NCBI RefSeq assembly: GCF_024362785.1
Contig: NZ_CP093301.1
Coordinates: forward strand, 930,001 to 994,000
Length of the DNA: 64,000 bases
Direction of reading: 5' to 3'
Origin: Evansella sp. LMS18
GTDB lineage: Bacteria; Bacillota; Bacilli; Bacillales; Salisediminibacteriaceae
This document shows positions 26,060-47,665 of this stretch, in pieces. The notes beneath the pieces were generated by a model. That model saw only the letters and a program-made list of their open reading frames with translations. It made no database searches and was not told the origin of the DNA. The position numbers and the translations under genes are program-made. Each line of letters opens with the position of its first letter. Within the stretch, counting starts at the first letter, position 1.

Positions 26060-26614
26060 CTGAGATGCTGTATTCCTCCGGGTGAGGGAACGAATCGGTA
26101 TGATTCGTTCCTTGAGATGCTTCATTCCTCCAAGTGAGGGAACGAATCCGCTTCATTCGTTCCTTGAGATGCTTCATTTCTCCGGGGGAGGGAACGAATC
26201 CGCTTCATTCGTTCCCTGAGATGCTTCATTCCTCCGGGTCAGGGAACGAATCGGTATGATTCGTTCCTTGAGATGCTTCATTCCTCCGGGTCAGGGAACG
26301 AATCCGCTTCATTCGTTCCTTGAGATGCTTCATTTCTCCGGAGGAGGGAACGAATCCGCTTCATTCGTTCCCTGAGATGCTTCATTCCTCCGGGTCAGGG
26401 AACGAATCCGCTTCATTCGTTCCTTGAGATGCTTCATTCCTCCGGGTCAGGGAACGAATCCGCTTCATTCGTTCCCTGAGATGCTGCTTTCCTTCGAGTC
26501 AGGGAACGAATCCGCTTCATTCGTTCCCTGAGATCTTCATTACTCCAAGTCAGGGAACGAATCCGCTTCATTCGTTCCCTGAGATGCTTCATTCCTCCAA
26601 GTGAGGGAACGAAT
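26060..26614. repeat. 52-bp tandem repeat array I (ten full units plus partial)
   Basis: GAGATG(C) recurs at 26062, 26114, 26166, 26218, 26270, 26322, 26374, 26426, 26478 and 26530, exactly 52 bp apart, then at 26581 after a 1-bp loss. Each unit holds GGAACGAAT and ATTCGTTCC around a 5-7 nt loop; loops vary (CCGCTTC or CGGTATG) while arms are kept. It lies between the dfrA terminator and yunB. Confidence 0.97.
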
Positions 26615-26640
26615 TATAGAATTCTCTATCCTGTACCGCA

Positions 26641-26670
26641 AAAAACCAGAGGCGGCGGCCTCTGGTTTGC
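26641..26670 (-). terminator. Intrinsic terminator of thyA-dfrA
   Basis: AAACCAGAGGC/GCCTCTGGTTT stem with a short GC loop and a T6 tract on the minus strand. Confidence 0.92.
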
Positions 26671-26702
26671 GGAGCACTTGCTAAATATGGTTTTAACGCA
26701 AA

Positions 26703-27191
26703 CTATTTTTTCCTTTCATAAACAAGAAAGGTATGCTCATATACATTTTTCTCGTCAGTCTCCCCTTTTTCAGAGGAGACCACTTCCCACTCATCTTCTG
26801 AAATCTCCGGAAAATATGTGTCACCTTCAAATTCATCATGGATGACTGTCAGATATATTCTGTCTGTTACTGGCAGGAGCTGCCTGAACAGTGTTTCTCC
26901 GCCGATTAAAAAGAACTCTTCTTCTTTTTGGACGGCCAATTGTTTCACCTCATCCAGGGAATGAAGCACTTCCACGCCCTCAGGTGCATACGATTGCTGC
27001 GTGGTTACCACAATATTGCGCCTGTCAGGCAGAGGCCTTCCGATAGATTCATGAGTTTTACGTCCCATTATGATTGTATGTCCCGTTGTTACCCGTTTAA
27101 AAAATTTGAGGTCGTTCGGAAGGTGCCATGGCAGGTCACCGTCTTTACCGATTACTCTGTTTTCATCCATTGCCACTACCATCGAAATCAT
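26703..27191 (-). CDS. dfrA: Dihydrofolate reductase
   Basis: A 162-residue NADPH-dependent enzyme that regenerates tetrahydrofolate. The substrate-binding acid D27 lies in [11 protein letters not shown], and [15 protein letters not shown] binds the cofactor. Its start overlaps the thyA stop by 4 nt (ATGA), so translation is probably coupled. ThyA produces the dihydrofolate it reduces. Named by function; B. subtilis calls it dfrA. Confidence 0.96.
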
Positions 27192-27982
27192 ACAGACACC
27201 TCACCTTTAATATGTGGGTGCGGATCATATCCAGTAAGCTCAAAATCTTCAATTGTAAAGTCCTCAATTTTCTTTTTATCAGGATTAAGTTTCATTTCCG
27301 GCAGCGGCCGAGGGTCCCTTGTTAGCTGAAGATTTACCTGTTCAATATGATTCTTGTATATATGGACATCCCCGAACGTGTGGATAAATTCTCCTAATTC
27401 AAGCTCGCATTCCTGAGCGACCATCATCGTCAGCAAAGCATAGGAGGCTATGTTAAACGGCACACCAAGGAAAAGATCAGCGCTTCGCTGATAGAGCTGG
27501 CAGGACAGCTTTCCGTCAGCTACATAAAACTGGAACAGGCAATGGCATGGAGCAAGCGCCATTTTATCAAGGTCCGCGACATTCCAGGAGTTTACGATAA
27601 GCCTTCGGGAATCTGGGTTGTTTTTAATCTCATTGATGATTTGGCCAAGCTGGTCGATTGCCCCTCCTTCAGGATCCGGCCACGAACGCCATTGCTTTCC
27701 GTAAACTGGGCCAAGGTCACCGTTTTCATCCGCCCATTCATTCCAGATCCTCACGTTGTTTTCCTGAAGGTATTTAATATTTGTGTCTCCTTTAATAAAC
27801 CACAGGAGCTCATGGATAATAGCACGGAGTGCCAGCTTTTTCGTAGTCAGCACTGGAAACCCTTCGTTCAGATCGAATCGCATCTGGTAGCCGAAGGTGC
27901 TGATTGTCCCCGTGCCAGTTCTGTCTTCTTTTTCCGTTCCATTTTCCAGGACATGCCTGCATAAGTCGAGGTACTGCTGCAC
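27188..27982 (-). CDS. thyA: Thymidylate synthase (ThyA type)
   Basis: A 264-residue enzyme converting dUMP to dTMP with methylene-tetrahydrofolate. It has the DRTGTGT loop near 22-28, the catalytic cysteine in [11 protein letters not shown] and [18 protein letters not shown] start at 27982 is chosen because AAGGGTGG lies 5 nt upstream and the length equals the usual 264; an in-frame GTG at 27991 falls within the ribosome site. The gene is followed by dfrA with 4-nt overlap. Confidence 0.95.
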
Positions 27983-28042
27983 AGAAACCACCCTTTCAGT
28001 TCGTTAAAATTATTTGCTGTTTTTCTGTCTTACACTAATGTT

Positions 28043-29146
28043 CTAGGAGGCTTCTTCCTGGGAAAGTGATGTCTCACAGGAAGAAATGGTGACATTTAAT
28101 GTTTTCATCAGGTCAACTTCATAAGGGTCAACTTCCTGTCCCTTCTCTCTAGTCACCCGGATTACAGGCCTGGAAGTAAAATCGCCGTTTTGCTTTGCGA
28201 CGATCCCTGTGCGCCCGTCACTTAAAGTCACTTCCAGCCCCACTGGATAAATAGCTATTGTTTTCGCAAAAGTCTCCACAATATCCTTGTCGAATAAAGT
28301 GTTCACACCAGAATAAAGGAGCTCGAGTGCTTCATGGGGAAGCTTTGCGTTCCGGTATACTCTGTTTCCTGTCACTGCTTCGAATACGTCTGCCACCCCG
28401 ATTAATTTGGCGTACAGATGGATGTCCTTCCCTTTCAGTCCCCGTGGATAGCCTGAGCCATCTATTCTTTCATGGTGTTGGTAGGCACAATGAGCAGCCA
28501 GTAGAGATATTGTATGGGATTTCCTAAGCATTTCAAACCCTATTACCGGGTGTTCCTGAATTAATTTAAATTCTTCATCCGTTAATGCTTCTTTTTTATT
28601 GAGGATTTTCTCAGGGATGGCAATTTTACCAATATCGTGGAGTATAGCTCCCATACCCAGCTCCTCAAGCTGCTTCTCGCTCAATCCATACTTTTTTCCT
28701 AAAGCAATAGAATAAATCGTGACATTCAGGGAATGGCGGAAAATATATGTATCATAGCTAAACGCATCTGAAAGCATGGAAATCGCTTCTTTATTCTCCC
28801 GGATGTCACCTAGGATATTCTGGACTACCGAGGAAAAGGAAGGCTCCAGCTTGTCCATATCGATTGATTTCCCTAACACCATTTTTTCAGAAATAGTCCG
28901 GAAATTAGACTGAATCGTTTTAATCGACTCACGTCTCGTTTTCTCACTTATAGTTTCTTTAATATGTAAATCATCCGTCAGGGAATCTTCTATATAAACA
29001 AAAGTGATCCCCTTATCCTTCATTTTTTCAATGATCCCTTTTGTCAGGGTGACTCCTTTATGCAGCAATACTTGTCCATTTTCGTTATATATTGCTTTTG
29101 CCAGACAATCATTATCTTTAAGCGCGTTGATTGACCGTAATCTCAT
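28043..29146 (-). CDS. HD-GYP domain cyclic-di-GMP phosphodiesterase-like protein
   Basis: A 367-residue cytosolic protein. An N-terminal region of about 125 residues, with no recognised sensor, precedes an HD-GYP domain with HDIGK at 170-174, HHERIDGSGYPRGL at 224-237 and ADVFEA at 252-257. All metal and GYP residues are intact, so hydrolysis of c-di-GMP or a related dinucleotide is likely. It sits between thyA-dfrA and yunC; this gene is not part of the B. subtilis order that I recall. Confidence 0.9.
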   Translation of the reverse strand: MRLRSINALKDNDCLAKAIYNENGQVLLHKGVTLTKGIIEKMKDKGITFVYIEDSLTDDLHIKETISEKTRRESIKTIQSNFRTISEKMVLGKSIDMDKLEPSFSSVVQNILGDIRENKEAISMLSDAFSYDTYIFRHSLNVTIYSIALGKKYGLSEKQLEELGMGAILHDIGKIAIPEKILNKKEALTDEEFKLIQEHPVIGFEMLRKSHTISLLAAHCAYQHHERIDGSGYPRGLKGKDIHLYAKLIGVADVFEAVTGNRVYRNAKLPHEALELLYSGVNTLFDKDIVETFAKTIAIYPVGLEVTLSDGRTGIVAKQNGDFTSRPVIRVTREKGQEVDPYEVDLMKTLNVTISSCETSLSQEEAS

Positions 29147-29225
29147 ATGATCCCCCGTCCTTTTTCTGAGGCACTTAACAGCAGCTCCTCCCTTAGCCAG
29201 CCTGAAAGGAGCTGCGAATTTATCC

Positions 29226-29528
29226 TTACGCCATTTTTAGCAGCGCATCTTTTCCTGTCATTCCTTTGAAAATTCCTCGTTTCTCCGCCTCGACTGTCAC
29301 TAATTCCAGTGGTGCAGCCAGCAAATCGTCAATCGACCTGACGCCTGTAGCCCTGCCTGCAATTATTTTACGGTCCTGCAATTTCTCATTAAGCAAATTC
29401 ACATCGAGTGCTCCGCACATGATATAGCCTGTTTCGTTAGACACCATTAAAAGGTTAGTTTTGGGAAGCTGGACTGAAACTGCTGTAAACGGCTTCCCTT
29501 CAATAAAAAGCGGTTTTACCTCCACCAT
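29226..29528 (-). CDS. yunC: YunC family protein (DUF1805)
   Basis: A 100-residue protein with central SNETGYIMCGALDVNLLNEK and GRATGVRSIDDLLAAPL segments, both typical of DUF1805. The family fold is known from structural work but not its function. AGAGGTG is 6-7 nt before the ATG. Order yunC-yunD-yunE-yunF matches B. subtilis. A GCAGCTCCT/AGGAGCTGC hairpin at about 29180-29212 may end it, without a good T tract. Confidence 0.9.
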   Translation of the reverse strand: MVEVKPLFIEGKPFTAVSVQLPKTNLLMVSNETGYIMCGALDVNLLNEKLQDRKIIAGRATGVRSIDDLLAAPLELVTVEAEKRGIFKGMTGKDALLKMA

Positions 29529-29627
29529 TATTTACACCTCTTTCTCTCTGCTGATTATAAGGGACACCTTAAATCAACCTATGAGCCTGGGAAAGAAAAG
29601 GTGTATGTCCAGACCTGGCAGGTAAGT

Positions 29628-31034
29628 TTATTCTGGTTCAGTATATTGTTCTTTTAGTTTCCATATTAACACATCACGGAGAAATTCCGGCATATAATAT
29701 TCCTTCTCTGAAATGGAACTTATCGCTGGGTACAGATGGCCGAATGTAAACATATCAAGTGTAGCCAGCTTATATTCCCTTGACCGGGAAAGTTTTTCGC
29801 CGTTTATAAATACGTCATCTTCACTTATGTAAGACTTGTTCTCCGGTACTTTTATTTTATCAAATACCATTGCGCCAAGGATTTTTCCACGGAACCCAAA
29901 ACCCTTTAACGCAAATTCGACCATTTCCTTTTTTCTCGCCTGCCTGATAATTTCCAGTAACTTTTCACCGGAAATCCTCACTGCCGCCGGATTTATCGGA
30001 TGAGGGCATATTCGGTGAATATCTTTATAAGTAACGAGGCCTTCAGGGAGGCCTTCAAGTAAAACTCCCGCATTGACCATGCTTATTTCAGCATCGCACC
30101 ACTCAGTAAGTCCTTCTGCAAGAAGCGTTGCCAGGGATGCCGGGGAATACCAGTCTGAATTAAGGCGCTCAGGCAGATCGATTACTTTTTCACTCATATT
30201 CCTGTCAGCCTGAACAGCCAATTCACTTATCAGTTTATCTGTCTGTTCATCCCGCTGCTGCAGATTCATTTCTTCTGTTGTAACCTTATATATATCTACC
30301 TTATCCTGCAGGTTACCTTCACTGTGGATATTAATTTTCACTTCTCCGGCGTACTTGCCGCCCCGGCCACACTGATTTATCCAGGTACTGTTTATTTTTT
30401 TCCCCTCCGGCAGTACATGGTGAGTATGGGCTCCAAGCACCAGGTCAAACTCCGGTATTTGTTCCGCCATCTGCACATCCTCTGATAATCCTAAGTGGGA
30501 GAGACATATCAGCAAATCCGTATCTGGTTTAAGCTCCTTGGCTATTCGAGTCAGTTCCTCCAATGGATACTCCACTTTCCAGCCCAGTGTTTTATAAAAG
30601 AGCTGAAAAGGCACAGTAGCCCCGGTGATGCCAACTCTCAGCCCTCCCGGAGTAGTGATTATCTTCCAGGGGACAGCCCAGCTTGGCCGCTCTCCATCAG
30701 GTTCAAATAAATTACTTACAATTACCGGGAATTCAGCATTACTGTACAGACTGTCTAGCTCTGCTTTTGGAAGAGTCATTCCTTCGTTGTTGCCAATTGT
30801 TACAGCATCGTATTCAAGTTCATTTAACAGCCTTACATTCCCGGTCCCGTGCAGCCCCTCCGTAACAGGGTGCGCTCTGTCTGCATGGTCGCCAATATCA
30901 AAAAGGAGAACATCTTCCCCATTTATTTTTGCTTGCTTTTTTCTGTCTTTGAGCCAGGCTGTCACTGAAGGCCAGTTTTCCAGCTGGCTGTGCAAATCAT
31001 TTGTATGGAGTATCCGCAGCTTTTTGACTGCCAA
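29628..31034 (-). CDS. yunD: YunD, 5'-nucleotidase/2',3'-cyclic phosphodiesterase family
   Basis: A metallophosphoesterase of about 468 residues. N-terminal HTNDLHSQ, DIGDHAD, GNNEG and GAHTHH motifs bind two metals; a 5'-nucleotidase C-terminal substrate domain follows. No signal peptide is seen, so it is probably cytoplasmic. The start is uncertain: a TTG at 31034 has GGCGGTGGG upstream and gives about the B. subtilis YunD length (462), while another TTG at 31070 has a GAGGGG-like context within its own codons. Confidence 0.87.
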   Translation of the reverse strand: MAVKKLRILHTNDLHSQLENWPSVTAWLKDRKKQAKINGEDVLLFDIGDHADRAHPVTEGLHGTGNVRLLNELEYDAVTIGNNEGMTLPKAELDSLYSNAEFPVIVSNLFEPDGERPSWAVPWKIITTPGGLRVGITGATVPFQLFYKTLGWKVEYPLEELTRIAKELKPDTDLLICLSHLGLSEDVQMAEQIPEFDLVLGAHTHHVLPEGKKINSTWINQCGRGGKYAGEVKINIHSEGNLQDKVDIYKVTTEEMNLQQRDEQTDKLISELAVQADRNMSEKVIDLPERLNSDWYSPASLATLLAEGLTEWCDAEISMVNAGVLLEGLPEGLVTYKDIHRICPHPINPAAVRISGEKLLEIIRQARKKEMVEFALKGFGFRGKILGAMVFDKIKVPENKSYISEDDVFINGEKLSRSREYKLATLDMFTFGHLYPAISSISEKEYYMPEFLRDVLIWKLKEQYTEPE

Positions 31035-31153
31035 AATCCCACCGCCTATCCAAATCAATGTGCCCCTCAAATAGTTTAATCCTGAGGGGGTTATAACATG
31101 TTATTTTTTTCTATCGGCACTGCCGCTCAGGTTACGCTTTCCCGGGCAATACT

Positions 31154-31975
31154 TTACCCGGTAATCCCCTGGTAAATAAGCCTTATGCCTATAATGACGA
31201 GAAAAATCCTGAGCATGTTTACGACCGCCTGGCTTGTCATTTTCCTGTTAATGGCTGCGCCTATTTTACCGCCGTACCAGGCACCTGGAATCAACGCCAG
31301 AGCATACAGCCACTCCACGTTTCCCAGGGAGATATGGGAAACAGAACTGACAATCGCCGATAAAAATATCATCAGCATAGAGGTTGCCACTGCCAGATGA
31401 GGAGGAAAACCGAAAAGAAGAATCATTGCAGGGACCATCATAGATCCTCCGCCGATGCCGAAGAGCCCTGAACACATTCCTACAACGAATGAGATGGCAA
31501 TTGCCACCGATGGCTGAAATCCATATGTTACTGTTTCCCCGCCCGGAGCAGTATAACTTCTTATAATTCCAGTCCCCCTTCTCTTCAGGGGCTTAATGTA
31601 TTTCCTCACCATCAAAATAAACGAAACGATGATTATAAAACAACCAAAGAAGACTAAAAAATTGTTTGTATTAATATCTTTATTGAGCCAGACGCCAAAC
31701 AGAGCACCTGGACCGCTGCCACAGAAAAAAATCAGTGCTGCTTTATAATCCACTGTCTTCTGCTTCATATAAGCCAGTGTCGATGACAAGCCTGTAAAAA
31801 TCATAACCAGAAGAGAGGTTCCTACTGCAGTCTGTGGGGTGATTCCTTCAAAAAAAACTGTGTAAGCACTTAAAACCATGAGTGCAGGAACAATTATTAT
31901 CCCCCCGCCAAGTCCCATGATGCTGCCAAGTATTGCAGCGGCAAACCCTAAAATAACCAATAGTATCCATTCCAT
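31154..31975 (-). CDS. yunE: YunE, TauE/SafE family anion exporter
   Basis: A 273-residue membrane protein with about eight helices in two similar halves; GLGGGIIIVPAL near 20-32 and GIGGGSMMVPAM near 175-187 are the repeated family motifs. Members export sulfite or organosulfonates, or act in sulfur uptake; the substrate here is unknown. It is followed by yunD on the same strand after 119 bp. Confidence 0.9.
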   Translation of the reverse strand: MEWILLVILGFAAAILGSIMGLGGGIIIVPALMVLSAYTVFFEGITPQTAVGTSLLVMIFTGLSSTLAYMKQKTVDYKAALIFFCGSGPGALFGVWLNKDINTNNFLVFFGCFIIIVSFILMVRKYIKPLKRRGTGIIRSYTAPGGETVTYGFQPSVAIAISFVVGMCSGLFGIGGGSMMVPAMILLFGFPPHLAVATSMLMIFLSAIVSSVSHISLGNVEWLYALALIPGAWYGGKIGAAINRKMTSQAVVNMLRIFLVIIGIRLIYQGITG

Positions 31976-32114
31976 ATGTTAACCTGCTTTCAACTATTCA
32001 ACTCTGTTTCATTCAATTTTTACGTTATTGCATTTCATATAATTCCCCATCGGGATACTGGTGGAAAATACTAACCTGACATTTATCTTTTTACTTCCTG
32101 CCCATCCTCTATTA

Positions 32115-32963
32115 TCAGTCAAATAAGTCCATTTGTCGAGGTGCGAGACCCTTATATTTCAGGCCTGCAAGCTCCATGAACGTGCGGGCATTGCCTGCCG
32201 CATGGCCCCCGGAATTATTATTGAAAATCACAAAAACCTCCTCCGTATCCTGTGCGACAGTTTGTATTTTATCCGCAAGGGCGGTGAGCTCCGATTCGCT
32301 GTAATCGTACAGATAACGGACATCCCGCCATTCCTGGCCTTTGGAAGGCTTTGTCCAGCCGTGCACATTCCTGCCATGTAAGCGGACAAGCGTCTTTTCT
32401 CCAACTGGCACAGGCACGAAAGGAATCGATTTCTCGCCGGCTTGCGGTTCATCACAGATACTGTGGATCCAGTTATCCTCTTTCATGTACTGAATGGTCC
32501 TCTCTCTGTATTGAGGAGAAAACCACGACTGGTGCCGGAATTCCAGCGCAGCAGGGACGTCTTCCAGCAATTTTTTAGAGTAGCGGAGATAATCCACGTT
32601 TTCTTTCCTGCAGTCAAACCAAGGTGGAAATTGCAGCAGAACCATCGCAAGCTTCCCTGCGTCTCTCATCGGCTCAAGAGACTTTTTAAAAGCTTCAAAC
32701 ATCTCCTCTTTTGAATCGAAGGGGATTTCTCCCCGCTGATGCCCTGTCATTCCCTGATAGGCTTTCACGACAAACTGAAAAGACTCTGGCGTATCTTTAA
32801 CCCATTTTTTCATATTTCGTTCTGGCTGTACTGCATAAAAAGAAGCATCGAGTTCAACGATTGGGAAGTGCCCGGCATACTGGCTGAGCTTATCTGTAGG
32901 TGATTTCAGATCGTGATATAAGGAGTCATGGTCTCCCCAGCCGGCTAATCCTGTCCAGATCAT
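32115..32963 (-). CDS. yunF: YunF, DUF72 family protein
   Basis: A 282-residue TIM-barrel-like DUF72 protein. It starts MIWTGLAGWGDHDSLY and contains ELDASFYAVQPE, LLQFPPWF, LEFRHQSWF and RLHGRN motifs, all conserved in the family. No enzymatic activity is established. TGGAGG lies 6-7 nt before the ATG. A 52-bp array begins 64 bp upstream of its start, where its promoter would be expected. Confidence 0.92.
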   Translation of the reverse strand: MIWTGLAGWGDHDSLYHDLKSPTDKLSQYAGHFPIVELDASFYAVQPERNMKKWVKDTPESFQFVVKAYQGMTGHQRGEIPFDSKEEMFEAFKKSLEPMRDAGKLAMVLLQFPPWFDCRKENVDYLRYSKKLLEDVPAALEFRHQSWFSPQYRERTIQYMKEDNWIHSICDEPQAGEKSIPFVPVPVGEKTLVRLHGRNVHGWTKPSKGQEWRDVRYLYDYSESELTALADKIQTVAQDTEEVFVIFNNNSGGHAAGNARTFMELAGLKYKGLAPRQMDLFD

Positions 32964-33026
32964 TCTATCTCCTCCATTTTATTTTTGTTGGTTACGGGGG
33001 GTGGTTGATATGCGGGTGTCACATAG

Positions 33027-33420
33027 GTTCGGGTAGGCGGGATGTTCCAGCGTCACCTTTCTCCAGACGTTTTCGGGTGTTCGGGCATGCTGGACGCTCC
33101 AGCGTTACCTTTCTCCAGGCTTTTTTGGGAGTTCGGGCATGCTGGACACTCCAACGTTACCTTTCTCCGGACTTTTTTGGGTGTTCGGGCATGCTGGACG
33201 CTCCAGCGTTACCTTTCTCCAGGCTTTTTTGGGAGTTCGGGTATGCTGGACACTCCAGCGTTACCTTTCTCCGGGCTTTTTCAGGAGTTCGGGCATGCTG
33301 GACACTCCAGCGTTACCTTTCTCCGGGCTTTTTCAGGAGTTCGGGCATGCTGGACACTCCAGCGTCACCTTTCTCCAGACTTTTTCAGGAGTTCTGGCAT
33401 GCTGGACGTTCCAGCGTTAT
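33027..33420. repeat. 52-bp tandem repeat array II (seven to eight units)
   Basis: GTTCGGG-type unit starts occur at 33027 (degenerate), 33079, 33131, 33183, 33235, 33287, 33339 and 33391, each exactly 52 bp apart. Each unit has GCTGGA-CAC-TCCAGC as a tight hairpin next to GCATGC. Sequence is unrelated to arrays I and III. Because 52 is not divisible by 3 and the unit lacks stops, all three plus frames stay open. Confidence 0.97.
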
Positions 33421-33524
33421 TTTCAACCTTTACTACCTGCAGTACATGTAAATTCCCTTTTAACTTAGATGTCAAAACTAACTGACTCCACCACAATAAA
33501 TAATACACCATTTTCAGAGAATAG

Positions 33525-33557
33525 AAAAAACCGGGGGGAATCCCCGGTTTCATTTTT
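33525..33557 (-). terminator. Intrinsic terminator of the recombinase gene
   Basis: AACCGGGG/CCCCGGTT stem followed by six T on the minus strand; it lies 85 bp past the stop. Confidence 0.85.
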
Positions 33558-33639: not shown

Positions 33640-34194
33640 TTAAAGGTTAACATCAATCAGAGGTATAGCGGCATCTTCTTTCTTTGCCCCAATGTATCGG
33701 AGTGTTTCCGAAGGAGTAGCATGATGAAACCGCTCTTGTAATAATGCTAATGATACTCCCTTTCTGAACGCATGGTATCCGAATGTTTTTCTTAAGGTGT
33801 GGGTCCCTATATGCTCGTGTATTCCTGCTTCTGCAGCAGCTTGCTTCACAATCCTGTAAGCATGTTGTCTTGTGATGGGGTCCCCTTTTTTCGTTGAGGT
33901 AAATAAATAATCTTCTCTGTCAATTTCCTTCTTCTCGAGAAAGTAACTTAACGCGTTCCTTACATTTCTGTTTAGATATATTCCACGCTCATCCGGCGAT
34001 ATATATAAAACTTTCGCTGGTTCTCCTTCTGAAGTCAGTACGTCATTTAGTTTAAGCTTCAGCATTTGACTGATTCTGAGGCCGGTATTTATCCCTATCA
34101 CAAAAAGCAGATAATCCCGAATGGAGCGTTCTTTTAACTTAGCTTTTATTTGCTCAATTTTTTTTACGTCACGAATCGCATCAACAAACTCCAT
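33640..34194 (-). CDS. Minimal tyrosine recombinase (YoeC-like)
   Basis: A 184-residue tyrosine recombinase catalytic domain without the usual N-terminal arm- and core-binding domains. All key residues are visible: R40 (TGLRIS), H132 and R135 (HTLRKTF), H158 and the nucleophile Y167 (TLRYIG). It resembles B. subtilis YoeC in size. It is not flanked by phage genes or obvious att repeats. It lies between a 52-bp array and the suf operon. Its start has no strong ribosome site: GGGGGGC lies just upstream of the ATG. Confidence 0.87.
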   Translation of the reverse strand: MEFVDAIRDVKKIEQIKAKLKERSIRDYLLFVIGINTGLRISQMLKLKLNDVLTSEGEPAKVLYISPDERGIYLNRNVRNALSYFLEKKEIDREDYLFTSTKKGDPITRQHAYRIVKQAAAEAGIHEHIGTHTLRKTFGYHAFRKGVSLALLQERFHHATPSETLRYIGAKKEDAAIPLIDVNL

Positions 34195-40282: not shown

Positions 40283-40322
40283 AAAAAAACCGGCTGGCAG
40301 AATCTACGCCTGCCAGCCAGTT
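40283..40322 (-). terminator. Strong intrinsic terminator
   Basis: CTGGCTGGCA/TGCCAGCCGG stem with a 10-12 nt loop, then seven T on the minus strand. A strong terminator here argues for a transcribed gene upstream, namely the small frame at 40367-40519. Confidence 0.9.
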
Positions 40323-40366
40323 ATGCATATATTTCTTAAAGGTACTGCCCTCTTACATACATCGTT

Positions 40367-40519
40367 CTATGTGTGAATCTGTCTGCTGTACTGCGAGAGA
40401 ATCTGCATCGACTTACGATGGTCTTTCTCCCGTTCTTTCTCAACCTCTAAACGGTTTTCCAGTTTACGATTATACTCCTCATAACCTATACCATATGACT
40501 GGTACATTGCCTTTTCCAT
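40367..40519 (-). CDS. Small hypothetical helical protein
   Basis: A 50-residue frame, MEKAMYQSYGIGYEEYNRKL onwards, highly charged and probably helical, followed 45 bp later by a strong terminator. The ATG at 40519 has a poor ribosome site. In-frame sequence continues upstream for 12 codons (IIHQIQTKHTNE) to an ATT at 40555, 9 nt from AAAGGA, so translation might begin at ATT or the 5' end may be altered by a small insertion. Real product likely but start unsure. Confidence 0.5.
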   Translation of the reverse strand: MEKAMYQSYGIGYEEYNRKLENRLEVEKEREKDHRKSMQILSQYSRQIHT

Positions 40520-40834
40520 CTCGTTCGTATGTTTGGTTTGAATCTGATGGATAATGAATCACATTCCTTTCGGTTTTTTTTGGCCAAACTTTGGTGCTTG
40601 AAGAAAAACTTCCCCAATTGCTCGCACCTTAAACCAGATTTGACCTCTTTTTCTTACAAACCAATCATACCATTTAAGAATTTTTTACCCAAAGTGCACA
40701 GCGCTGCTTATTAAGGAAGGAGGCAGTGTAAGATTTCCTCTCACCACCTCACCAAGAGAAGATGGAAATATACGCTTAATACCTCCAATATTCTCACAAT
40801 TCCAAAAACTGGGTTGCATGGATGTAATTACTGC
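40520..40834. other. Intergenic stretch downstream of yurZ
   Basis: AT-rich DNA of 315 bp between yurZ and the small frame. An AAGGAGG near 40718 on the plus strand precedes no convincing frame. I see no further gene or terminator. Confidence 0.4.
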
Positions 40835-41206
40835 TTAGTGAAGATTTCCCCCAAATTCTTCGAGACATTCTTCCACCAGAGTAACCGCCTGGCTCATTGC
40901 TGCTCCGCCTCCAAATGCTCCTGTGACACCAACAGCTTCAAGAATTTCCTCCTGAGAACACCCATGGTCGAGGCAGCCTTTCATATGATAGATAATACAA
41001 TACTCGTCCTGAGCGTACAGACTGATACCCAGCGCGATCAGCTGTTTCTCTTTTTGTGTCAGTTTCCCTTCCTCGAAGCAGGCTTCTGTAAAGGCATTGT
41101 ATTTACTGGCAATTTCCGGCATCTGTCTCGTAAATGTCCCTAAGCCTTCTTTATAATAATGTAATGCTTCTTCCACTGAGGACATTGGCCTGATTTCATT
41201 ATCCAT
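40835..41206 (-). CDS. yurZ: Carboxymuconolactone decarboxylase family protein (YurZ)
   Basis: A 123-residue AhpD-like all-helical protein. The active-site region [18 protein letters not shown] near 67-84 has cysteines in the family position, though the classic CxxC of AhpD is not conserved. A role in thiol-dependent peroxide or redox chemistry is possible. Sequence and place beside suf match B. subtilis YurZ. AAAGGAG lies 12 nt before the ATG. Confidence 0.88.
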
Positions 41207-41417
41207 ATTTCCTGCACTCCTTTTTTAATCCTGTTGTTTTTCTTTCTGGCTGCTGCTTATTTTATTTGCAGATCCAGTTATTAAAAGTAAGCATTTTTTA
41301 TTATTACTTTAATCAGGAAAAATATCATGAGGTGCAGAGAAAAATGAAATTGATTTGTTTTCTTAAAGTGAATCAATTTCATTATCTACTTGAATGAATT
41401 TCATATATAGACTTTGT

Positions 41418-41662
41418 ATAAAAAAAGACGAACGTTTCTTTTCGATTGCAGCGTAAGACGGCGGTGACTGTCTCTTCCTCTGCCAGCTTAGCTCCGTAGA
41501 ATATCCGTCGAGACAACTCGACGCATTTGCGGTGAAGAAGATGCTCGTTCTCGCGGGAAAAGCATGAAAAGCTGAAAATCCATTTTTGGCGGCGTTCAGC
41601 CGTCAAAAATTAGTTGAAGCCGTGCCCGCAGAACGCGTCCGTCTGATGCGTAAATCGAACAA
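41418..41662. repeat. Dispersed intergenic repeat, copy B
   Basis: It aligns with copy A (17106-17390) over nearly its whole length but lacks about 34 bp. The terminator-like stem is TTTTTGGCGGC/GCCGTCAAAAA with loop GTTCA, which is the reverse complement of the copy A loop TGAAC. It lies between metQ's terminator and the region upstream of yurZ. Confidence 0.88.
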
Positions 41663-41696
41663 CACAGACCCGGCTCTTTAAAAGAACCGGGTCTGC
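41660..41696 (-). terminator. Terminator of metNPQ
   Basis: CAGACCCGG/CCGGGTCTG stem with a 14-nt loop, followed by the short TGTTGTT on the minus strand; 10 bp past metQ. Confidence 0.75.
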
Positions 41697-41705
41697 CATG
41701 CATTA

Positions 41706-42635
41706 TTATTCAGCTGGTACTACTGCTCCATCGTATTCTTCAACGATGAAATCTCTTACTTCTTCGGACTGAAGTACTTCTACAAGCTTAACAACTCGTG
41801 GATCTTCCTCGTCACCTGAATTAACAGCAATTACGTTAACATAAGGGTTGTCCTGGTCGCCGGATTCAAGTGCAATCGCATCTTCCAGTGGGTTCAGGCC
41901 AGCGTCAAGTGCATAGTTAGAGTTGATTAGCACAGCGTCACCCTCGCCATTTTCATAAGCTGTTGGAAGAAGAGCCGCTTCCACATTAGCCTGGAAATCG
42001 AAGTTATTAGGATTCTCTTCAATATCATCAATTGAAGCCCCAATTCCTGCACCTTCCGCAAGAGTGATAAGACCGTTATCTTCAAGCATCATTAAGATAC
42101 GCCCGTGGTCAGCAACAGAATCACTCATGATGATCTGAGCGCCTTCAGGAAGCTCGTCAAGACTGCTGTATTCCTGAGAATAGATTCCGATTGGCTCAAT
42201 ATGGATTCCGCCAGCATTTACAAAATCATAGCCATTTTCTTCGATTTGCATTTCAAGGTAAGGAATGTGCTGGAAATAGTTTGCATCCAGTTCACCAGCG
42301 TCAAGCGCTTCGTTCGGAAGAATATAATCGTTAAAAGTCACGATATCAAGTTCCACGCCTTCTTCTTCAAGAAGCGGCTGAGCAAATTCTAAAATCTCAG
42401 CGTGTGGAACGTTGGTAGCTCCGACTACTAATTCACCTAAATCCTCTGCTGCTTCTTCGTTGTTGCCTTCGTTGTCATTCTCAGCAGCATCGTTGTTTAC
42501 TTCCCCACTGTTATTACCTGCGTTGCCATCGTTTGCAGCCTGGTTGTTGTTATTATTGTTATCGCCTTCGCCACAAGCTGCAAGCAGCCCCACTGATAAA
42601 CCTGCAACGCTTAGAGTTTTAAAAATTCTTTTCAT
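41706..42635 (-). CDS. metQ: Methionine ABC transporter substrate-binding lipoprotein MetQ
   Basis: A 309-residue lipoprotein. The signal and lipobox LLAAC end near residue 21; a 50-residue asparagine/aspartate/glutamate-rich linker follows, then a NlpA/MetQ domain starting ELVVGATNVPHAEIL. The very acidic linker is longer than in B. subtilis and fits a salt-adapted cell surface. AAGGAGG is 8 nt before the ATG. It is the last gene of the SAM-riboswitch-controlled metNPQ operon. Confidence 0.95.
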   Translation of the reverse strand: MKRIFKTLSVAGLSVGLLAACGEGDNNNNNNQAANDGNAGNNSGEVNNDAAENDNEGNNEEAAEDLGELVVGATNVPHAEILEFAQPLLEEEGVELDIVTFNDYILPNEALDAGELDANYFQHIPYLEMQIEENGYDFVNAGGIHIEPIGIYSQEYSSLDELPEGAQIIMSDSVADHGRILMMLEDNGLITLAEGAGIGASIDDIEENPNNFDFQANVEAALLPTAYENGEGDAVLINSNYALDAGLNPLEDAIALESGDQDNPYVNVIAVNSGDEEDPRVVKLVEVLQSEEVRDFIVEEYDGAVVPAE

Positions 42636-42667
42636 TATAAGTTCCTCCTTATTTTTAGAAAAAATTA

Positions 42668-43354
42668 TTATCTTTTGTCTAATCTATTGGTCAAGCGATC
42701 ACCGATAAACTGAAGAATAAAGACGATCACTAACACAATCAAAGTCGCCATGAGGGTGATATCTGTGTTTCTTCTCTGGAATCCGTCACGGTACGCCAGG
42801 TCCCCGAGGCCTCCTGCTCCAATAACTCCCGCCATCGCAGTATAACTGACAAGGGCAATAGCTGTAACCGTAAGCCCTGAGACCAGAGCCGGCATGGATT
42901 CGGGAAGCAGTACTTTAAAAATAATCTGGCTGTTGCTCGCCCCCATTGATTTGGAAGCTTCAATGACACCTTTGTCAATTTCCCTTAAAGCAATCTCTAC
43001 CATCCTTGCATAAAAGGGGGCAGCCCCGATGATTAAAGCAGGGAGTGCCGCTGAAGGCCCCAGCATCGTTCCAACCACAATCCTGGTGAACGGGATTAGC
43101 AATACAATTAAGATAATGAACGGGATGGAACGAAATACGTTCACATATGCCGCTGTAACACCCTGAATAATCCTGTTTTCCCAGAGATTCCCACGGTCAG
43201 TTAAAAACAGCAGCAGCCCGAGGAGAAGTCCAAACAGGAAAGTGAACAGCAATGCTACTACAGACATATACAGCGTTTCCTGAGTTGCCTCCCACATGTT
43301 CTCCCAGTTAACATTCGGAAACAATAAAATGTTTCCAGCAATCAAATTACTCAC
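42668..43354 (-). CDS. metP: Methionine ABC transporter permease MetP
   Basis: A 228-residue inner-membrane permease with five or six helices and the MetI-type EAA loop IDKGVIEASKSMGASNSQII. A GTG start at 43354 overlaps the metN stop by 8 bp, with GGAGG 9 nt upstream. Orthologue of B. subtilis MetP and E. coli MetI. Confidence 0.94.
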   Translation of the reverse strand: MSNLIAGNILLFPNVNWENMWEATQETLYMSVVALLFTFLFGLLLGLLLFLTDRGNLWENRIIQGVTAAYVNVFRSIPFIILIVLLIPFTRIVVGTMLGPSAALPALIIGAAPFYARMVEIALREIDKGVIEASKSMGASNSQIIFKVLLPESMPALVSGLTVTAIALVSYTAMAGVIGAGGLGDLAYRDGFQRRNTDITLMATLIVLVIVFILQFIGDRLTNRLDKR

Positions 43355-44372
43355 CGTGAATCACCTCCACTTCCACTTGCTGTTCACGGATATAATCTTT
43401 AACCCGGCTTATTTCGGAAGCTTCCCCGTCAACACCGATAAATAATGACCCGTATGGCCCGTTCTGCGTCTGGCTGATCTTCCCCTGAAGAATATTCACT
43501 GTAACATCAAATGACCTGACAATATTATTTATCAAAGGCTTTTTTGCGTCTCCGCCGACAAATGTCAGCTGGAGTATATGGCCAATTCCTTTTTCCCCGA
43601 AAAGATCCTTTAATGTTTCTTCCGTTTCCTCCGGCTCGGTCACCTGTTTAACAAATTCTTTAGTCATATTTTCTTTTGGACGCTTGAACACATCGAGGAC
43701 ATTACCCTGCTCTACAACCCTGCCCTGCTCCATTACTGCAACTCGGTGGCAGATTTTCCGGATAACATGCATTTCGTGGGTGATGAGGACGATGGTCAAA
43801 CCAAGGTTTTTATTAATGTCTGTCAGGAGCTCAAGAATCGAGTCCGTTGTTTTCGGGTCAAGGGCGGAAGTTGCTTCATCACAGAGAAGGACTTTCGGAT
43901 TATTAGCAAGAGCTCTTGCAATACCTACCCTTTGTTTCTGCCCTCCGCTGAGCTGAGAAGGATAAGATCCCCCTCTTCCTTCGAGTCCTACAAGCCTGAT
44001 CAGCTCGTTGACCCGATTTTCTCTTTCCTCTTTTGGTATCCCTTTAATTTCAAGGGGGAAGGCAATATTATCTTTTACTGTTCTGGACCAGAGCAGATTG
44101 AAATGCTGGAATATCATTCCGATCTCCTGGCGAGCCTCTCTCAGCTCCCGCTTCGAAAGATCCTCCATCTTTTTCCCAGCAACTGTTACGGAGCCCTCGG
44201 ATGGAGACTCGAGCATATTCAGCAGCCTGATCAGCGTACTTTTACCTGCCCCGCTGTACCCGATAATACCGAATATCTCCCCTTCTTCAATGGTTAGATC
44301 TATGTTGTCAACGGCTGTTACTTTGCCGTCTTTCGTATTAAAGACCTTAGAAAGCTTAGATAAGTTAATCAT
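43347..44372 (-). CDS. metN: Methionine ABC transporter ATP-binding protein MetN
   Basis: A 341-residue ATPase. Walker A GYSGAGKST is at 38-46, signature LSGGQKQRVGIARAL near 140-154 and Walker B VLLCDEATSALD just after. The C-terminal about 80 residues form the NIL/ACT-like domain that senses intracellular methionine. GAGG is 8 nt before the ATG. First gene of the operon, downstream of a SAM-I riboswitch. Confidence 0.95.
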   Translation of the reverse strand: MINLSKLSKVFNTKDGKVTAVDNIDLTIEEGEIFGIIGYSGAGKSTLIRLLNMLESPSEGSVTVAGKKMEDLSKRELREARQEIGMIFQHFNLLWSRTVKDNIAFPLEIKGIPKEERENRVNELIRLVGLEGRGGSYPSQLSGGQKQRVGIARALANNPKVLLCDEATSALDPKTTDSILELLTDINKNLGLTIVLITHEMHVIRKICHRVAVMEQGRVVEQGNVLDVFKRPKENMTKEFVKQVTEPEETEETLKDLFGEKGIGHILQLTFVGGDAKKPLINNIVRSFDVTVNILQGKISQTQNGPYGSLFIGVDGEASEISRVKDYIREQQVEVEVIHGE

Positions 44373-44500
44373 CCTTTGGGCCTCACTTTCTTTAAAAACT
44401 ATATATCTTGTAATCTTATCTGTTTAGTCAATTTAGAGTGCGAAAGGATAAAAGAACAAGCTCTCCTATCTTAACAAACAGTATGGCTGAATATAAAACA

Positions 44501-44541
44501 AAAAAACCTTTCGGCTCACGAAAAATAAGCAGAAAGGTTAA
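44501..44541 (-). terminator. Terminator of the SAM riboswitch
   Basis: AACCTTTC/GAAAGGTT stem with a long loop followed by seven T on the minus strand. It forms when SAM is bound. Confidence 0.88.
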
Positions 44542-44558
44542 TAAATATAGTCCCGTCT

Positions 44559-44663
44559 CTTATCTTCCAAAGCCTATGCTTTGCAGGAATTGGCACCTTC
44601 CAGGTTTCCCTGGTGGTTGCCGGGCTTCATCGGGCCAGTCCCTCCGCCTCTCTGGATAAGAAA
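44559..44663 (-). promoter_or_regulatory. SAM-I riboswitch (S-box)
   Basis: The minus strand reads CTTATCCAGAGAGGCGGAGG, then ACTGGCCCGATGAAGCCCGG, CAACC, AGGTGCCAATTCCTGCAAAG and GATAAG, the S-box core elements in order, with P1 formed by CTTATC and GATAAG. It controls metNPQ by transcription termination. Confidence 0.95.
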
Positions 44664-44697
44664 TATTAAGTTAATGTTCAGTGAATTACTAAACAGC

Positions 44698-44727
44698 ATC
44701 TTATCATGAAAAAATAAAGGTTGTCAA
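44698..44727 (-). promoter_or_regulatory. Sigma-A promoter of metNPQ
   Basis: TTGACA (perfect) and TAAGAT with an 18-bp spacer on the minus strand, about 35 bp before the S-box. Confidence 0.7.
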
Positions 44728-44797
44728 ATACTTTTATAAAATAATTAATACCATATGATACTGTCGGAATCTCCTTACGAGAGTTTGCGGTTTTCTC

Positions 44798-45127
44798 CTA
44801 CTTCGTTAAAAACCAGATGGACTCAAGAAGAAGCAGCTCCCTCAGCTTTCCTTCAGCCTTTAGCTCCCCTCTTCGTTTCATGGAGAGGAGAAAATCTTCT
44901 CCATTTATAAATCGTGCAATAGATGATGAATTCCCTTCAATTACCAGAAAATCCCCTTCATTTTCTGCAGACTGCTTCCGTATCTTAAACTCCCCGTTAC
45001 ATAAATGAACAAACCAGCTGTCTTCTTCACATTTTATAAAAAAGGAAATATCTGCTTTTTTCACAAGACGGGCAATATGTTCTCCCTTTTTAATCCGTTC
45101 AGCAGAATCAATGAGAAGGTTTTCCAT
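44798..45127 (-). CDS. yusD: SCP2-like sterol carrier domain protein (YusD-like)
   Basis: A 109-residue protein with an alpha/beta pattern and a C-terminal GELKAEGKLRELLLLESIWFL, similar to SCP2 carrier domains that bind lipids or acyl groups. Position directly before metNPQ matches B. subtilis yusD; no ligand is known. GGAGGACAAGGAA precedes the ATG. Confidence 0.75.
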   Translation of the reverse strand: MENLLIDSAERIKKGEHIARLVKKADISFFIKCEEDSWFVHLCNGEFKIRKQSAENEGDFLVIEGNSSSIARFINGEDFLLSMKRRGELKAEGKLRELLLLESIWFLTK

Positions 45128-45199
45128 TTCCTTGTCCTCCGACCTTTATTTAAAATGGCTACCTTCTAAAGTTCCACATACCGAACGAAAAAACCTCTA

Positions 45200-46477
45200 T
45201 TAACCTGCATTTTGCGGAAGGTTTTCCGGGTTACTGTATACCGGCTTCCTGAAAACGAAGAAAAAGTATATTGTTCCGAGCAGATATAGGGCGCCGGTGA
45301 TGGAAAACACGATTGCATATCCTGTGTATGAACCATATACCATAACGATAGTGGTGGATACGGGCCCCATTACCGCCCAGCCAAGCATGAAAACAGCCTG
45401 CCCTACGGAATTTGCAAGGCCCTTGATGGAGTTATCCACACTCCTCATCATTAATGACATCTGAATCGGGTTACCTGCGTTCATCAGCGCCTGTCTGAAG
45501 AGAAAACCAAAGACTGCCCAGTAAATATTCTCTGTAAAGGCGGTAAGGAGCAAAAACGGGATAGACAGCAGCTGCAGGATAACAACTGCTTTCACTTCCC
45601 CTACCCTGGCAACTACCGCCGGACCTATCATAAGAGCAACAGCAGTCATCGCCTGCCCGGAGGAAATAATCAGACCTACAAGGGAGTGAGAGATCTCAAA
45701 CCGGTCCACAAAGTATAAATTCAGGTATGGAATAACAAGACCGGAACCAAACCCAATCAATATCTGGGCCCCGGCAAACAGGAGGATAATCTTGATCCCT
45801 GCTCTGTTTGACTGAAATAACTTTTTAAGAGACCTGTCCTGGACCTTTTTTTCCTCCAGTTTGCGATCTTCCTTAATTTTAGAAATAGGAATTAATGCGC
45901 TAAAGAAAAACATCGTTCCGGCAAGCAGCGTGATGCGGATACTCCAAAGCTGATCAAGGCCAATAACATAATGGAAAAAATCACTTACAACCCCGCCAAA
46001 AATATTGCCAATAACATTCGCAATCATGATAACCGCAAAATTAAAGCTGAATAAATGCACACGCTGTTTTTCCGTTGAATTCTCTGCCAGCAGCGGTATT
46101 GAAGAAACCTGGATAAAAGCCATAAACATTCCCGTCACGAATGCGAGTCCAAGCAGGGAAACTTCCCCAGCGAGGATGGCTCTGAAGAACAGGCTGGCGG
46201 CGGTAAACACGGCGCCGTACAGAATTACTTTCTTCCTTCCGACCCTGTCGCTCAGAATCCCGGCAGGCAAAAGAAGCAGCGCGGTAGCTATTGACTGCAT
46301 AGCTATGACAGAACCGTTCATCTGATCATCAAACCCAAGTTCACGAACATAATAGTTATAAATAATCATAAAGATACCCATTCCGGAATGGGCAAGGATG
46401 GAACTGATCAGAAATAAACGGACATTTCTGTTATAGCCTTTAAACTGGCGAGGCCATTCGCCGAGTATTTTCCCCAT
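45200..46477 (-). CDS. MFS transporter, 12 transmembrane segments
   Basis: A 425-residue major facilitator protein with about 12 helices. The loop 2-3 motif AGILSDRVGRKKVI is the MFS signature. No substrate can be assigned; the fold looks like a drug or sugar efflux type. The ATG at 46477 follows AAGGAG by 7 nt; the frame extends to 46543 without support. It has no counterpart at this place in the B. subtilis order that I recall. Confidence 0.88.
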   Translation of the reverse strand: MGKILGEWPRQFKGYNRNVRLFLISSILAHSGMGIFMIIYNYYVRELGFDDQMNGSVIAMQSIATALLLLPAGILSDRVGRKKVILYGAVFTAASLFFRAILAGEVSLLGLAFVTGMFMAFIQVSSIPLLAENSTEKQRVHLFSFNFAVIMIANVIGNIFGGVVSDFFHYVIGLDQLWSIRITLLAGTMFFFSALIPISKIKEDRKLEEKKVQDRSLKKLFQSNRAGIKIILLFAGAQILIGFGSGLVIPYLNLYFVDRFEISHSLVGLIISSGQAMTAVALMIGPAVVARVGEVKAVVILQLLSIPFLLLTAFTENIYWAVFGFLFRQALMNAGNPIQMSLMMRSVDNSIKGLANSVGQAVFMLGWAVMGPVSTTIVMVYGSYTGYAIVFSITGALYLLGTIYFFFVFRKPVYSNPENLPQNAG

Positions 46478-46611
46478 CTTTTTTCTCCTTCCGCCAAGAG
46501 GCGGACCTGTTCTATTTTGTTTATGTATTTCAATAATAAGCAAAAATATTTCGACTCACTAAATTATAATATAGACGATAATGGGTGATATGGGAAGCCT
46601 ATTTTTGGAAA

Positions 46612-46653
46612 ATAATAAAAAATCGCATGGAGGAACCTCTCCATACGATTTTT
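46612..46653 (-). terminator. Intrinsic terminator
   Basis: AAATCGTATGGAG/CTCCATGCGATTT stem (one wobble) followed by TTTATTATT on the minus strand, directly after the 113-residue gene. Confidence 0.88.
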
Positions 46654-46658
46654 CCGCC

Positions 46659-47000
46659 TCAGCACCAGCCCATATCACAGCCTTCAACATAGGCCTGCGG
46701 CTGGTTCGGATCCTTCGATGCGGCAGCATCTGTTTTCTTTTTGAATATTTTATCTTTGTCAAACTCAAAACCTTCCGCCATTTCAAACAAGTGCTGCTGG
46801 TCTCCCCCTGGCATGTGGCCAATTTTCTGCCCCCCCAGATAGAGGCCCGTCGAACCGTCTTTCTCATTCTGCCGGGTTACCTGCTGGGTGATTTCCTCCC
46901 TCGACTGGGCCCGGTTTCTTCGTATATCATCCACAATATGCCTTGTAACAGACTGTCCATCTCCTGCAGATGTGTTTAAATACTGCTCATTATCCGCCAT
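46659..47000 (-). CDS. Hypothetical protein with C-terminal CDMGWC
   Basis: A 113-residue hydrophilic protein with no recognised domain. Visible segments are SVTRHIVDDIRRNRAQSREE at 17-36, GLYLGGQKIGHMPGGDQQHL at 52-71 and the closing CDMGWC, where two cysteines four apart form the end of the chain and could be redox or metal active. It has its own terminator; AAGGGGAG lies 9-10 nt before the ATG. Confidence 0.75.
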   Translation of the reverse strand: MADNEQYLNTSAGDGQSVTRHIVDDIRRNRAQSREEITQQVTRQNEKDGSTGLYLGGQKIGHMPGGDQQHLFEMAEGFEFDKDKIFKKKTDAAASKDPNQPQAYVEGCDMGWC

Positions 47001-47145
47001 GCTGACTACTCCCCTTCCTTTTTAAGATTAGCTTGAACTGTTAAGGAAGATTATATGTCAGCCGTTGGGGTGTAAGTTTAACCAGTGGTGCCAGTATGAA
47101 GCAGTTTATATAGCCCGGTCCTTTTCTCTTAGATTGTATTCAGGA

Positions 47146-47665
47146 TTTGAGCACTCTCCACTGAGGCCAGGAGTCCATGACCTTCTTGCTGCATCCCTTG
47201 AGTAACGCGATGGCAGCCTCTCAAGTGACGCAAGGCCTTCTTGCATCCCTTGAGTAACGCGATGGCAGCCTTCCAAGTGACGCAAGGCCTTCTTGCATCC
47301 CTTGAGTAACGCGATGGCAGCCATTCAAGTGACGCAAGGCCTTCTTGCATCCCTTGAGTAATGCGAAGCCAGCCATTCAAGTGACGCAAGGCCTTCTTGC
47401 ATCCCTTGAGTAACAGGATGGCAGCCTCTCAAGTGACGCAAGGCCTTCTTGCATCCCTTGAGTAATGCGAAGCTAGCCATTCAAGTAACGCAAGGCCTTC
47501 TTGCATCCCTTGAGTAACAGGATGGCAGCCTCTCAAGTAACGCAAGGCCTTCTTGCATCCCTTGAGTAATGCGATGGCAGCCTCTCAAGTGACGCAAGGC
47601 CTTCTTGCATCCCTTGAGTAATGCGATGGCAGCCTCTCAAGTAACACAAGGTCTTCTTGCGATCA
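47146..47665. repeat. 52-bp tandem repeat array III (nine units plus partials)
   Basis: TTGAGTAA starts recur at 47198, 47250, 47302, 47354, 47406, 47458, 47510, 47562 and 47614, each exactly 52 bp apart. Units contain CTTGAG..CTCAAG and GCAAG-GCCTT-CTTGC inverted pairs; AACGCGATGG, AATGCGAAGC and AACAGGATGG variants alternate. The array fills most of the gap between gcvH and the 113-residue gene. Confidence 0.97.

What the first reader, a model, noticed from the sequence alone, without database searches (positions are those of the whole stretch)
26060..47665. Three unrelated intergenic arrays share exactly the same 52-bp period
Arrays at 26.1, 33.0 and 47.2 kb have different unit sequences, yet spacing is 52 bp almost without exception (one 1-bp loss in array I). 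52 bp is five turns of B-DNA at 10.4 bp. Each unit contains an inverted repeat. Constant period with free sequence implies selection on length or phasing, not on coding or a fixed site. I recall a published survey of Bacillus genomes (Subirana and Messeguer) reporting tandem repeats of constant size, 52 or 20-21 nt, with variable sequence; this window fits that and shows several families within 22 kb. Their function is, to my knowledge, unknown.
Basis: partly seen in the sequence, partly recalled or inferred. Interest (0 to 1): 0.85.

Follow-up and report, generated by a model that had tools for sequence, protein, structure and literature searches.

The report
Replication-oriented 52-bp hairpin repeat arrays
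The three repeat blocks belong to a published but unexplained class of 52-letter bacterial tandem repeats; here they share one hairpin skeleton, come and go between sister species, and several of their families point the same way as DNA replication, which is a testable clue to how they arise.

Summary
The three arrays are real: period 52 bp, with 10.7, 7.2 and 9.2 copies. They belong to the 52-nt repeat class of Subirana and Messeguer (PMC8161180). "Unrelated" is only partly right. In 23 arrays of this genome and its sister species, AGGTAACG (one mismatch allowed) occurs in 18, against 6-8 in shuffles. Twenty-three units align without gaps over 52 columns on one imperfect hairpin whose stem covaries: 50 double-change cells against 22 +/- 3.5 shuffled. 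So within this genus the shared period may largely reflect common descent.

Some families point with the replication fork: 30 of 33 loci here, 23 of 26 in Evansella clarkii, 20 of 22 for a different family in a third genome, 18 of 25 in a fourth. Array I's near-palindromic family (8 of 17) and the 20-21-nt class (7 of 15) do not. E. clarkii lacks array I and has about one degenerate unit at array II. Some whole arrays run at 51 bp, which argues against strict five-turn phasing.

Best reading (0.4): hairpin satellites that expand, contract and spread as single strands at the replication fork. No enzyme was found: none of four Y1 transposase loci carries this repeat.

The parts
26058..26614 (.). 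Array I: 10.7 copies of a 52-bp unit, near-perfect palindromic arms TCAGGGAACGAAT / ATTCGTTCCCTGA (13 bp, 7-nt inner spacer) plus a 19-nt linker; no preferred orientation to the fork in its family (8 of 17 loci)
33046..33419 (-). Array II: 7.2 copies of a 52-bp unit; skeleton GGTAACGC - 11 nt - GCATGCCC reads on the minus strand, which is the leading strand here
47190..47668 (+). Array III: 9.2 copies of a 52-bp unit, 15-bp imperfect arms CTCAAGTGACGCAAG / CTTGCATCCCTTGAG; nearly symmetric, orientation weak (score ratio 1.14) and here against the leading strand
26431..26482 (+). Representative unit of array I used in alignment A1
33285..33336 (-). Representative unit of array II used in alignment A1
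47205..47256 (+). Representative unit of array III used in alignment A1
26646..26667 (-). Terminator-like GC-rich hairpin between array I and the dihydrofolate reductase gene (read by eye, no scan run)
   Evidence: sequence
33530..33549 (-). Terminator-like hairpin between array II and the integrase-family gene (read by eye)
   Evidence: sequence
47729..47757 (-). Terminator-like hairpin between array III and the glycine cleavage H gene (read by eye)
   Evidence: sequence
24999..25961 (-). Gene downstream of array I: sporulation protein YunB family (PF09560); the ORF start lies in sequence absent from E. clarkii, so the true start is further in
26703..27191 (-). Gene upstream of array I: dihydrofolate reductase (PF00186)
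32115..32963 (-). Gene downstream of array II: DUF72 (PF01904)
33640..34194 (-). Gene upstream of array II: Phage_integrase family (PF00589), 184 aa
46659..47000 (-). Gene downstream of array III: DUF2553 (PF10830)
47770..48177 (-). Gene upstream of array III: glycine cleavage H protein (PF01597)

Best explanation
These are hairpin satellites tied to DNA replication. Shown: a unit is an imperfect 25-37-nt hairpin plus a linker; many units in this genus derive from one skeleton; arrays expand, contract, appear and vanish between sister species; units within an array are homogenised; polar families lie in one orientation relative to the fork. Inferred: when the lagging-strand template is single-stranded, the hairpin folds, and slippage, recombination or an unidentified single-strand-acting enzyme copies units locally and, more rarely, to new gaps between genes. 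Orientation is set either at insertion, as for IS200/IS605 elements, or by better survival in one orientation. Inside the genus the 52-bp period then persists mainly by descent and homogenisation; why unrelated genera share about 52 is not explained by this. The arrays are most likely selfish or neutral.
For: Shared skeleton: (18 of 23 arrays against 6-8 in 20 shuffles). Stem covariation: (75.7% of cells paired against 61.3% shuffled; 50 double-change cells against 22 +/- 3.5, 0 of 500 shuffles; slid controls 5-16; 11 of 15 pairs with double changes, although shuffles reach that last measure 201 of 500 times). Hairpins beyond the genus: 16 of 27 published consensus units at P <= 0.05. Polarity: (30 of 33, 23 of 26, 20 of 22, 18 of 25). 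In 17 strongly asymmetric arrays of this genome 16 follow the leading strand, including 9 of 10 whose flanking genes do not both point with the fork, while 541 of 769 genes do. Gain and loss: E. clarkii has an empty site at array I and at 922 kb, one degenerate unit at array II and about 1.5 units at 880 kb; conversely it has 15 units where this genome has one. At another gap the two species hold different 52-bp families. Concerted evolution: identity within species 0.85-0.91, between species 0.84 and 0.81. A review states that IS200/IS605 orientation recapitulates replication direction in its hosts (PMC5371812, passages seen).
Against: No enzyme found: the 52-bp skeleton is at none of the four Y1_Tnp loci of this genome. 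Array I's own family shows no polarity (8 of 17), and array III points weakly against the fork. Over all 47 loci without an asymmetry threshold only 27 follow the leading strand (P=0.38). The polar family of G007 has no significant hairpin in the unit folded (z -0.8), and 11 of 27 published units have none. Folding energy does not differ between strands (26 of 48). Purine richness on the leading strand, strong in 52-bp arrays (54 of 56 here, 19 of 20 in G003), is also seen in the 20-21-nt class (12 of 14), so it is not specific. Loci are related by descent, and those of this genome and E. clarkii partly orthologous, so P values are too small. Whether single units or arrays came first is not known; no near outgroup was available.
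Confidence: 0.4

Rival explanations
1. Orientation-dependent repeat instability without any dedicated enzyme. Hairpin repeats slip during replication, and one orientation is lost faster, so survivors point with the fork. Dispersal is occasional and passive.
For: Single or 1-1.5 unit remnants at homologous sites; homogenisation; polarity in asymmetric families but not in the near-palindromic one. Orientation-dependent stability of other repeats is known to me from memory, no call.
Against: Strand folding energies do not differ in the needed way (26 of 48; in the 18 asymmetric arrays the lagging-template strand is less stable in 14 by only 0.38 kcal/mol on average). It does not by itself explain the same arms at some 17 loci of family I or the 52-bp size.
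Confidence: 0.25
2. Phased protein-binding arrays that help organise the nucleoid (first reader; also proposed in PMC8161180). Sites repeat every five helical turns so that bound proteins face one side.
For: 52 = 5 x 10.4 and the second class at 20-21 is two turns; period 52 in 424 of 488 steps; a shared core in register.
Against: Some whole arrays at 51 (19.3 and 9.1 copies), 54-bp units, published families at 50-54. Several different inner and outer arm sequences coexist in one genome while remaining self-complementary, which suits pairing more than one fixed site. Two of six array loci in the 200-kb block lack any unit in the sister species.
Confidence: 0.18
3. A polar host signal, comparable in logic to FtsK/SpoIIIE-guiding or Chi sequences, read by a DNA translocase or repair enzyme moving along a replichore.
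For: Orientation switches with replichore in four genomes; hits of several families spread over most of the chromosome.
Against: Array I's family is not oriented; arrays are gained and lost between sisters; none of 70 loci lies in the 743 kb around the inferred origin (10.6 expected, gap chosen after seeing it), while in G007 hits lie close to position 0.
Confidence: 0.1
4. Transcribed regulatory RNA with repeated hairpins.
For: Transcripts of 52-nt repeats reported in B. coagulans RNA-seq (PMC8625621, parts 1 and 2 of 3 seen).
Against: Few wobble pairs and no clear strand preference: of 345 cells 251 Watson-Crick, 10 G-T on the given strand and 23 that would be G-T on the other, 11 of these 23 from one column. 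Orientation follows the fork rather than flanking genes where the two can be told apart (9 of 10; 4 of 4 tandem loci without threshold). No Rfam match in the window arrays at gathering scores.
Confidence: 0.07

Closest known systems
52-nt constant-size tandem repeats of Bacillus and relatives (Subirana and Messeguer, PMC8161180)
   Same: Period 51-53, non-coding, several families per genome, species-specific sequence, short signals shared within a genome, partial conservation between relatives.
   Different: That text does not analyse orientation to replication ('replication' occurs once) or stem covariation; it does note that signals and their reverse often lie in one repeat. Here the families of one genus are shown to share a skeleton.
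REP / BIME / REPIN elements with RAYT (Y1) transposases
   Same: Dispersed extragenic imperfect palindromes, sometimes in arrays.
   Different: None of the four Y1_Tnp loci of this genome carries the 52-bp skeleton; three have other repeats beside them, and the fourth (L076) has the 101-bp array family.
IS200/IS605 single-strand transposons
   Same: Orientation recapitulates replication direction (PMC5371812, passages); hairpins matter.
   Different: No transposase gene in the arrays; tandem amplification; no defined ends or target seen.
20-21-nt tandem repeats of the same survey
   Same: Coexist in this genome (periods seen as 21, 42, 82), purine-rich on the leading strand.
   Different: The family tested is not oriented to the fork (7 of 15).

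Membership tests
52-nt constant-size tandem repeats (PMC8161180) | Repeat of 51-53 nt, at least four copies | tested here: met
   52 bp, 10.7, 7.2 and 9.2 copies
52-nt constant-size tandem repeats (PMC8161180) | Several families of one length in the genome | tested here: met
52-nt constant-size tandem repeats (PMC8161180) | Non-coding | tested here: met
   by ORF calls the listed arrays lie between genes; two arrays in the sample were not placed (L056 14565, L088), and one search found an ORF overlapping two loci
52-nt constant-size tandem repeats (PMC8161180) | Short signals shared by the repeats of one genome | tested here: met
   AGGTAACG with one mismatch in 18 of 23 arrays
REP/BIME with RAYT | Cognate Y1 transposase gene flanked by the repeat | tested here: not met
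   0 of 4 loci, about 3.3 kb each
REP/BIME with RAYT | GTAG or similar tag at one end of the palindrome | not tested
   no call
IS200/IS605 | Encodes or uses a Y1 transposase | tested here: not met
   no ORF in the arrays
IS200/IS605 | Orientation follows replication | tested here: inconclusive
   met for polar families in three genomes and weakly in a fourth; not met for family I
Phased nucleoid-protein sites | Strict multiple of the helical repeat | tested here: inconclusive
   52 dominates, but some arrays at 51 and units at 54
Phased nucleoid-protein sites | A bound protein | not testable with these tools
   needs ChIP or footprinting
Structured RNA | Strand-specific wobble pairs and a known or new RNA family | tested here: not met

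The most novel reading that the evidence does not exclude
The 52-nt arrays are the product of a replication-coupled single-strand DNA process, by an enzyme not yet recognised or by orientation-selective repeat growth, that makes, spreads and refreshes hairpin units of fixed size in many Bacillaceae; orientation to the fork is its signature.
Probability: 0.33. Interest if true: 0.85.

Novelty: new member of a known kind. Interest (0 to 1): 0.6.

Why it matters
The class has had no mechanism since it was described. Fork orientation, stem covariation and empty or one-unit sites in a sister species give three handles that ordinary laboratory work can test. If right, it would add a replication-linked satellite system to bacteria and would change the reading of constant period from a helical-phasing signal to a trace of how the repeats are made.

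Tried and rejected
Y1/RAYT partner: four loci of this genome, no 52-bp skeleton. Phyletic pattern of PF01797: present in 32 of 40 genomes, with and without 52-nt arrays in the sampled stretches, so uninformative. Rfam: two riboswitches only, none in the arrays. Strand-specific hairpin stability as cause of polarity: no difference. Purine richness as a specific mark: not specific. A fixed 31/21 arm spacing that I first noted for I and III does not hold across arrays. Intrastrand triplex repeats (PMC4666352, passages): not pursued; that E. coli motif is reported there without strand bias. Skeleton match of G007 and G011 units: at chance. G002 polarity is P=0.043 with summed bits; with best-hit strand and the local skew at 96 kb it is 21 of 25, a choice made after seeing the first result.

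Rows dropped: A1 holds 23 of the 29 arrays; left out were the second half of the IS-split array in L033, L064 (misplaced register), three of G007 and one of G011 (no skeleton match). One array gave no units (L064 12386).
Full report
1. What is there. The window lies at 930001-994000 of a 4.90-Mb one-contig genome. Tandem Repeats Finder gives the three arrays at period 52. The window also holds a 20-21-nt class array at 5955-6157 (seen as 21, 40 and 82) and arrays of 86 and 101 bp at 59746-60546. G007 is probably Evansella cellulosilytica, from its 4.68 Mb and the signals GGTCATCAT and CAATGCT that its unit shares with the published table.

2. How common. In 600 kb of this genome (part of it chosen for known arrays) 18 of 39 arrays have a basic period of 51-52. 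Among 23 genomes sampled at 10-600 kb each, such arrays were seen in 5: G000, G002, G003, G007 and G011. The 18 others had samples of only 10-60 kb, so absence there is weak. A covariance model of the unit finds matches in 9 of 40 genomes, this one included; listed counts are lower bounds because only about 147 candidates per genome were scored.

3. The families are related. An unbiased word test on 23 arrays (17 here, 6 in G003) finds AGGTAACG with one mismatch in 18; shuffled consensus units reach 6-8. One unit from each of 23 arrays (15 here, 6 of G003, 2 of G002) aligns over 52 columns without a gap; G21, T42 and C45 are invariant. The stem of columns 16-30 with 36-50 is paired in 75.7% of cells, shuffles 61.3%; double-change cells are 50 against 22 +/- 3.5, covariation score 0.374 against 0.162, both 0 of 500 shuffles, and slid versions give 5-16 double-change cells. 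The number of pairs with a double change (11) and of pair types (23) do not exceed shuffles clearly (201 and 74 of 500). The middle of the stem (columns 22, 23, 25 with 44, 43, 41) is often unpaired. Related sequences inflate such scores, as the tool warns. Wobble pairs are few and show no clear strand preference. I take this as selection, or templated repair, for symmetry at DNA level (inference).

4. Beyond the genus. Of 27 published consensus units 16 have an inverted repeat at P <= 0.05 (span 25-40 nt), 11 do not. As single-stranded DNA the array I unit folds with z -4.9 and -3.8 on its two strands, array III -1.8 and -3.6, array II -1.2 and -1.4, the G007 unit -0.8 on both, the G011 unit -4.4.

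5. Length. Core spacing is 52 in 424 of 488 single steps, 51 in 60, 53 in 4. The 51s come in part from arrays that are 51 throughout (L215, L218). So a 1-bp change can spread through an array, and neither exact 52 nor exact phase is required.

6. Turnover. Against G003, in a 200-kb block with six 52-bp array loci in this genome (the IS-split pair at 880-882 kb counted once): array III and 1038 kb are arrays in both; array II is one degenerate unit and 880 kb about 1.5 units in G003; array I and 922 kb are absent, with flanks joined. Array I's absence includes about 130 bp of non-array flank. At G003 364 kb, 15 units stand where this genome has one, and a second gap carries a different 52-bp family in each species. 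In that block I saw no 52-bp array in G003 without a counterpart here. Within-array identity exceeds between-species identity at both shared arrays. Several loci join two unit types end to end (for example L063, L196, L201, L206). Which state is ancestral is unknown.

7. Place. Of 47 array loci, 27 lie between co-directed genes, 17 between converging and 3 between diverging ones. All gaps of the two-species sample were 431, 119 and 128; convergent excess P=0.003, divergent deficit P=0.025. Gene calls are ORFs only.

8. Orientation. GC skew puts the origin near 1.7 Mb and the terminus near 4.5-4.7 Mb. A type-B array as query finds 34 loci here; of 33 with known leading strand 30 agree with it, 23 of 26 in G003. 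In G007 its own family agrees in 20 of 22. In G002 18 of 25 take one orientation (P=0.043), or 21 of 25 with best-hit strand and local skew. By model score, 16 of 17 strongly asymmetric arrays follow the leading strand, and 9 of 10 where flanking genes do not both point with the fork; without the threshold it is 27 of 47, not significant. Genes follow it in 541 of 769. Controls: array I's family 8 of 17, the 20-21-nt family 7 of 15. 52-bp arrays are purine-rich on the leading strand in 54 of 56 (here), 19 of 20 (G003), 2 of 2 and 3 of 3, against 64% of 464 non-coding background windows, but the 20-21 class is so in 12 of 14.

9. Enzyme search. The genome has four Y1_Tnp matches. None carries the skeleton. 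L076 has the 101-bp array family beside it; L073, L074 and L075 have other repeats that recur elsewhere.

10. Reading. The arrays behave like satellites whose growth, loss and spread depend on the replication fork. This fits turnover, symmetry and polarity better than a fixed phasing device, but the unoriented family I, the weak hairpin of the G007 family and the missing enzyme keep my confidence at 0.4. Constant size across genera remains unexplained.

11. Literature. PMC8161180: all five parts of the held text. PMC8625621: parts 1-2 of 3. PMC6749651, PMC5371812, PMC3733652 and PMC4666352: passages. The 2020 J. Bacteriol. survey is not held. Searches for 52-nt repeats with replication or leading-strand terms returned no paper on their orientation in this library; the one hit is PMC8161180, where 'replication' occurs once in a general remark. 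The four hits were seen as listing, one as passages.

Noticed in passing
window 59746-60546 and L076 2084-2711: 86- and 101-bp arrays whose family also lies beside a Y1 transposase gene at 628.7 kb, so these look like a RAYT-linked repeat.
   Followed up: partly
window 5955-6157: 20-21-nt class array (periods 21, 40, 82), the second constant-size class of the same survey, in the same genome.
   Followed up: partly
L033 9962-12199: A Mutator-family transposase gene (PF00872) sits between two halves of a 52-bp array; E. clarkii has about 1.5 units there.
   Followed up: partly
G000 1403-2146 kb: None of 70 collected array loci lies in this 743-kb stretch around the inferred origin; 10.6 expected, limits chosen after seeing the gap. 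Not seen in G007.
   Followed up: partly
L222 5732-6105 and L208 6440-6715: The same gap holds a 52-bp array of one family in E. clarkii and of another in this genome.
   Followed up: partly
L063, L196, L198, L201, L203, L206, L082: Two different 52-bp unit types abut in one compound array at several loci, in either order.
   Followed up: no
window 950914-951185 (G000 coordinates; window 20914-21185): A 270-bp intergenic insertion relative to E. clarkii, not a 52-bp array.
   Followed up: no
window 24744-24923 and 44557-44662, minus strand: Lysine and SAM riboswitches.
   Followed up: no
window 33640-34194: A 184-aa Phage_integrase family gene lies next to array II; no link to the arrays was tested.
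   Followed up: no
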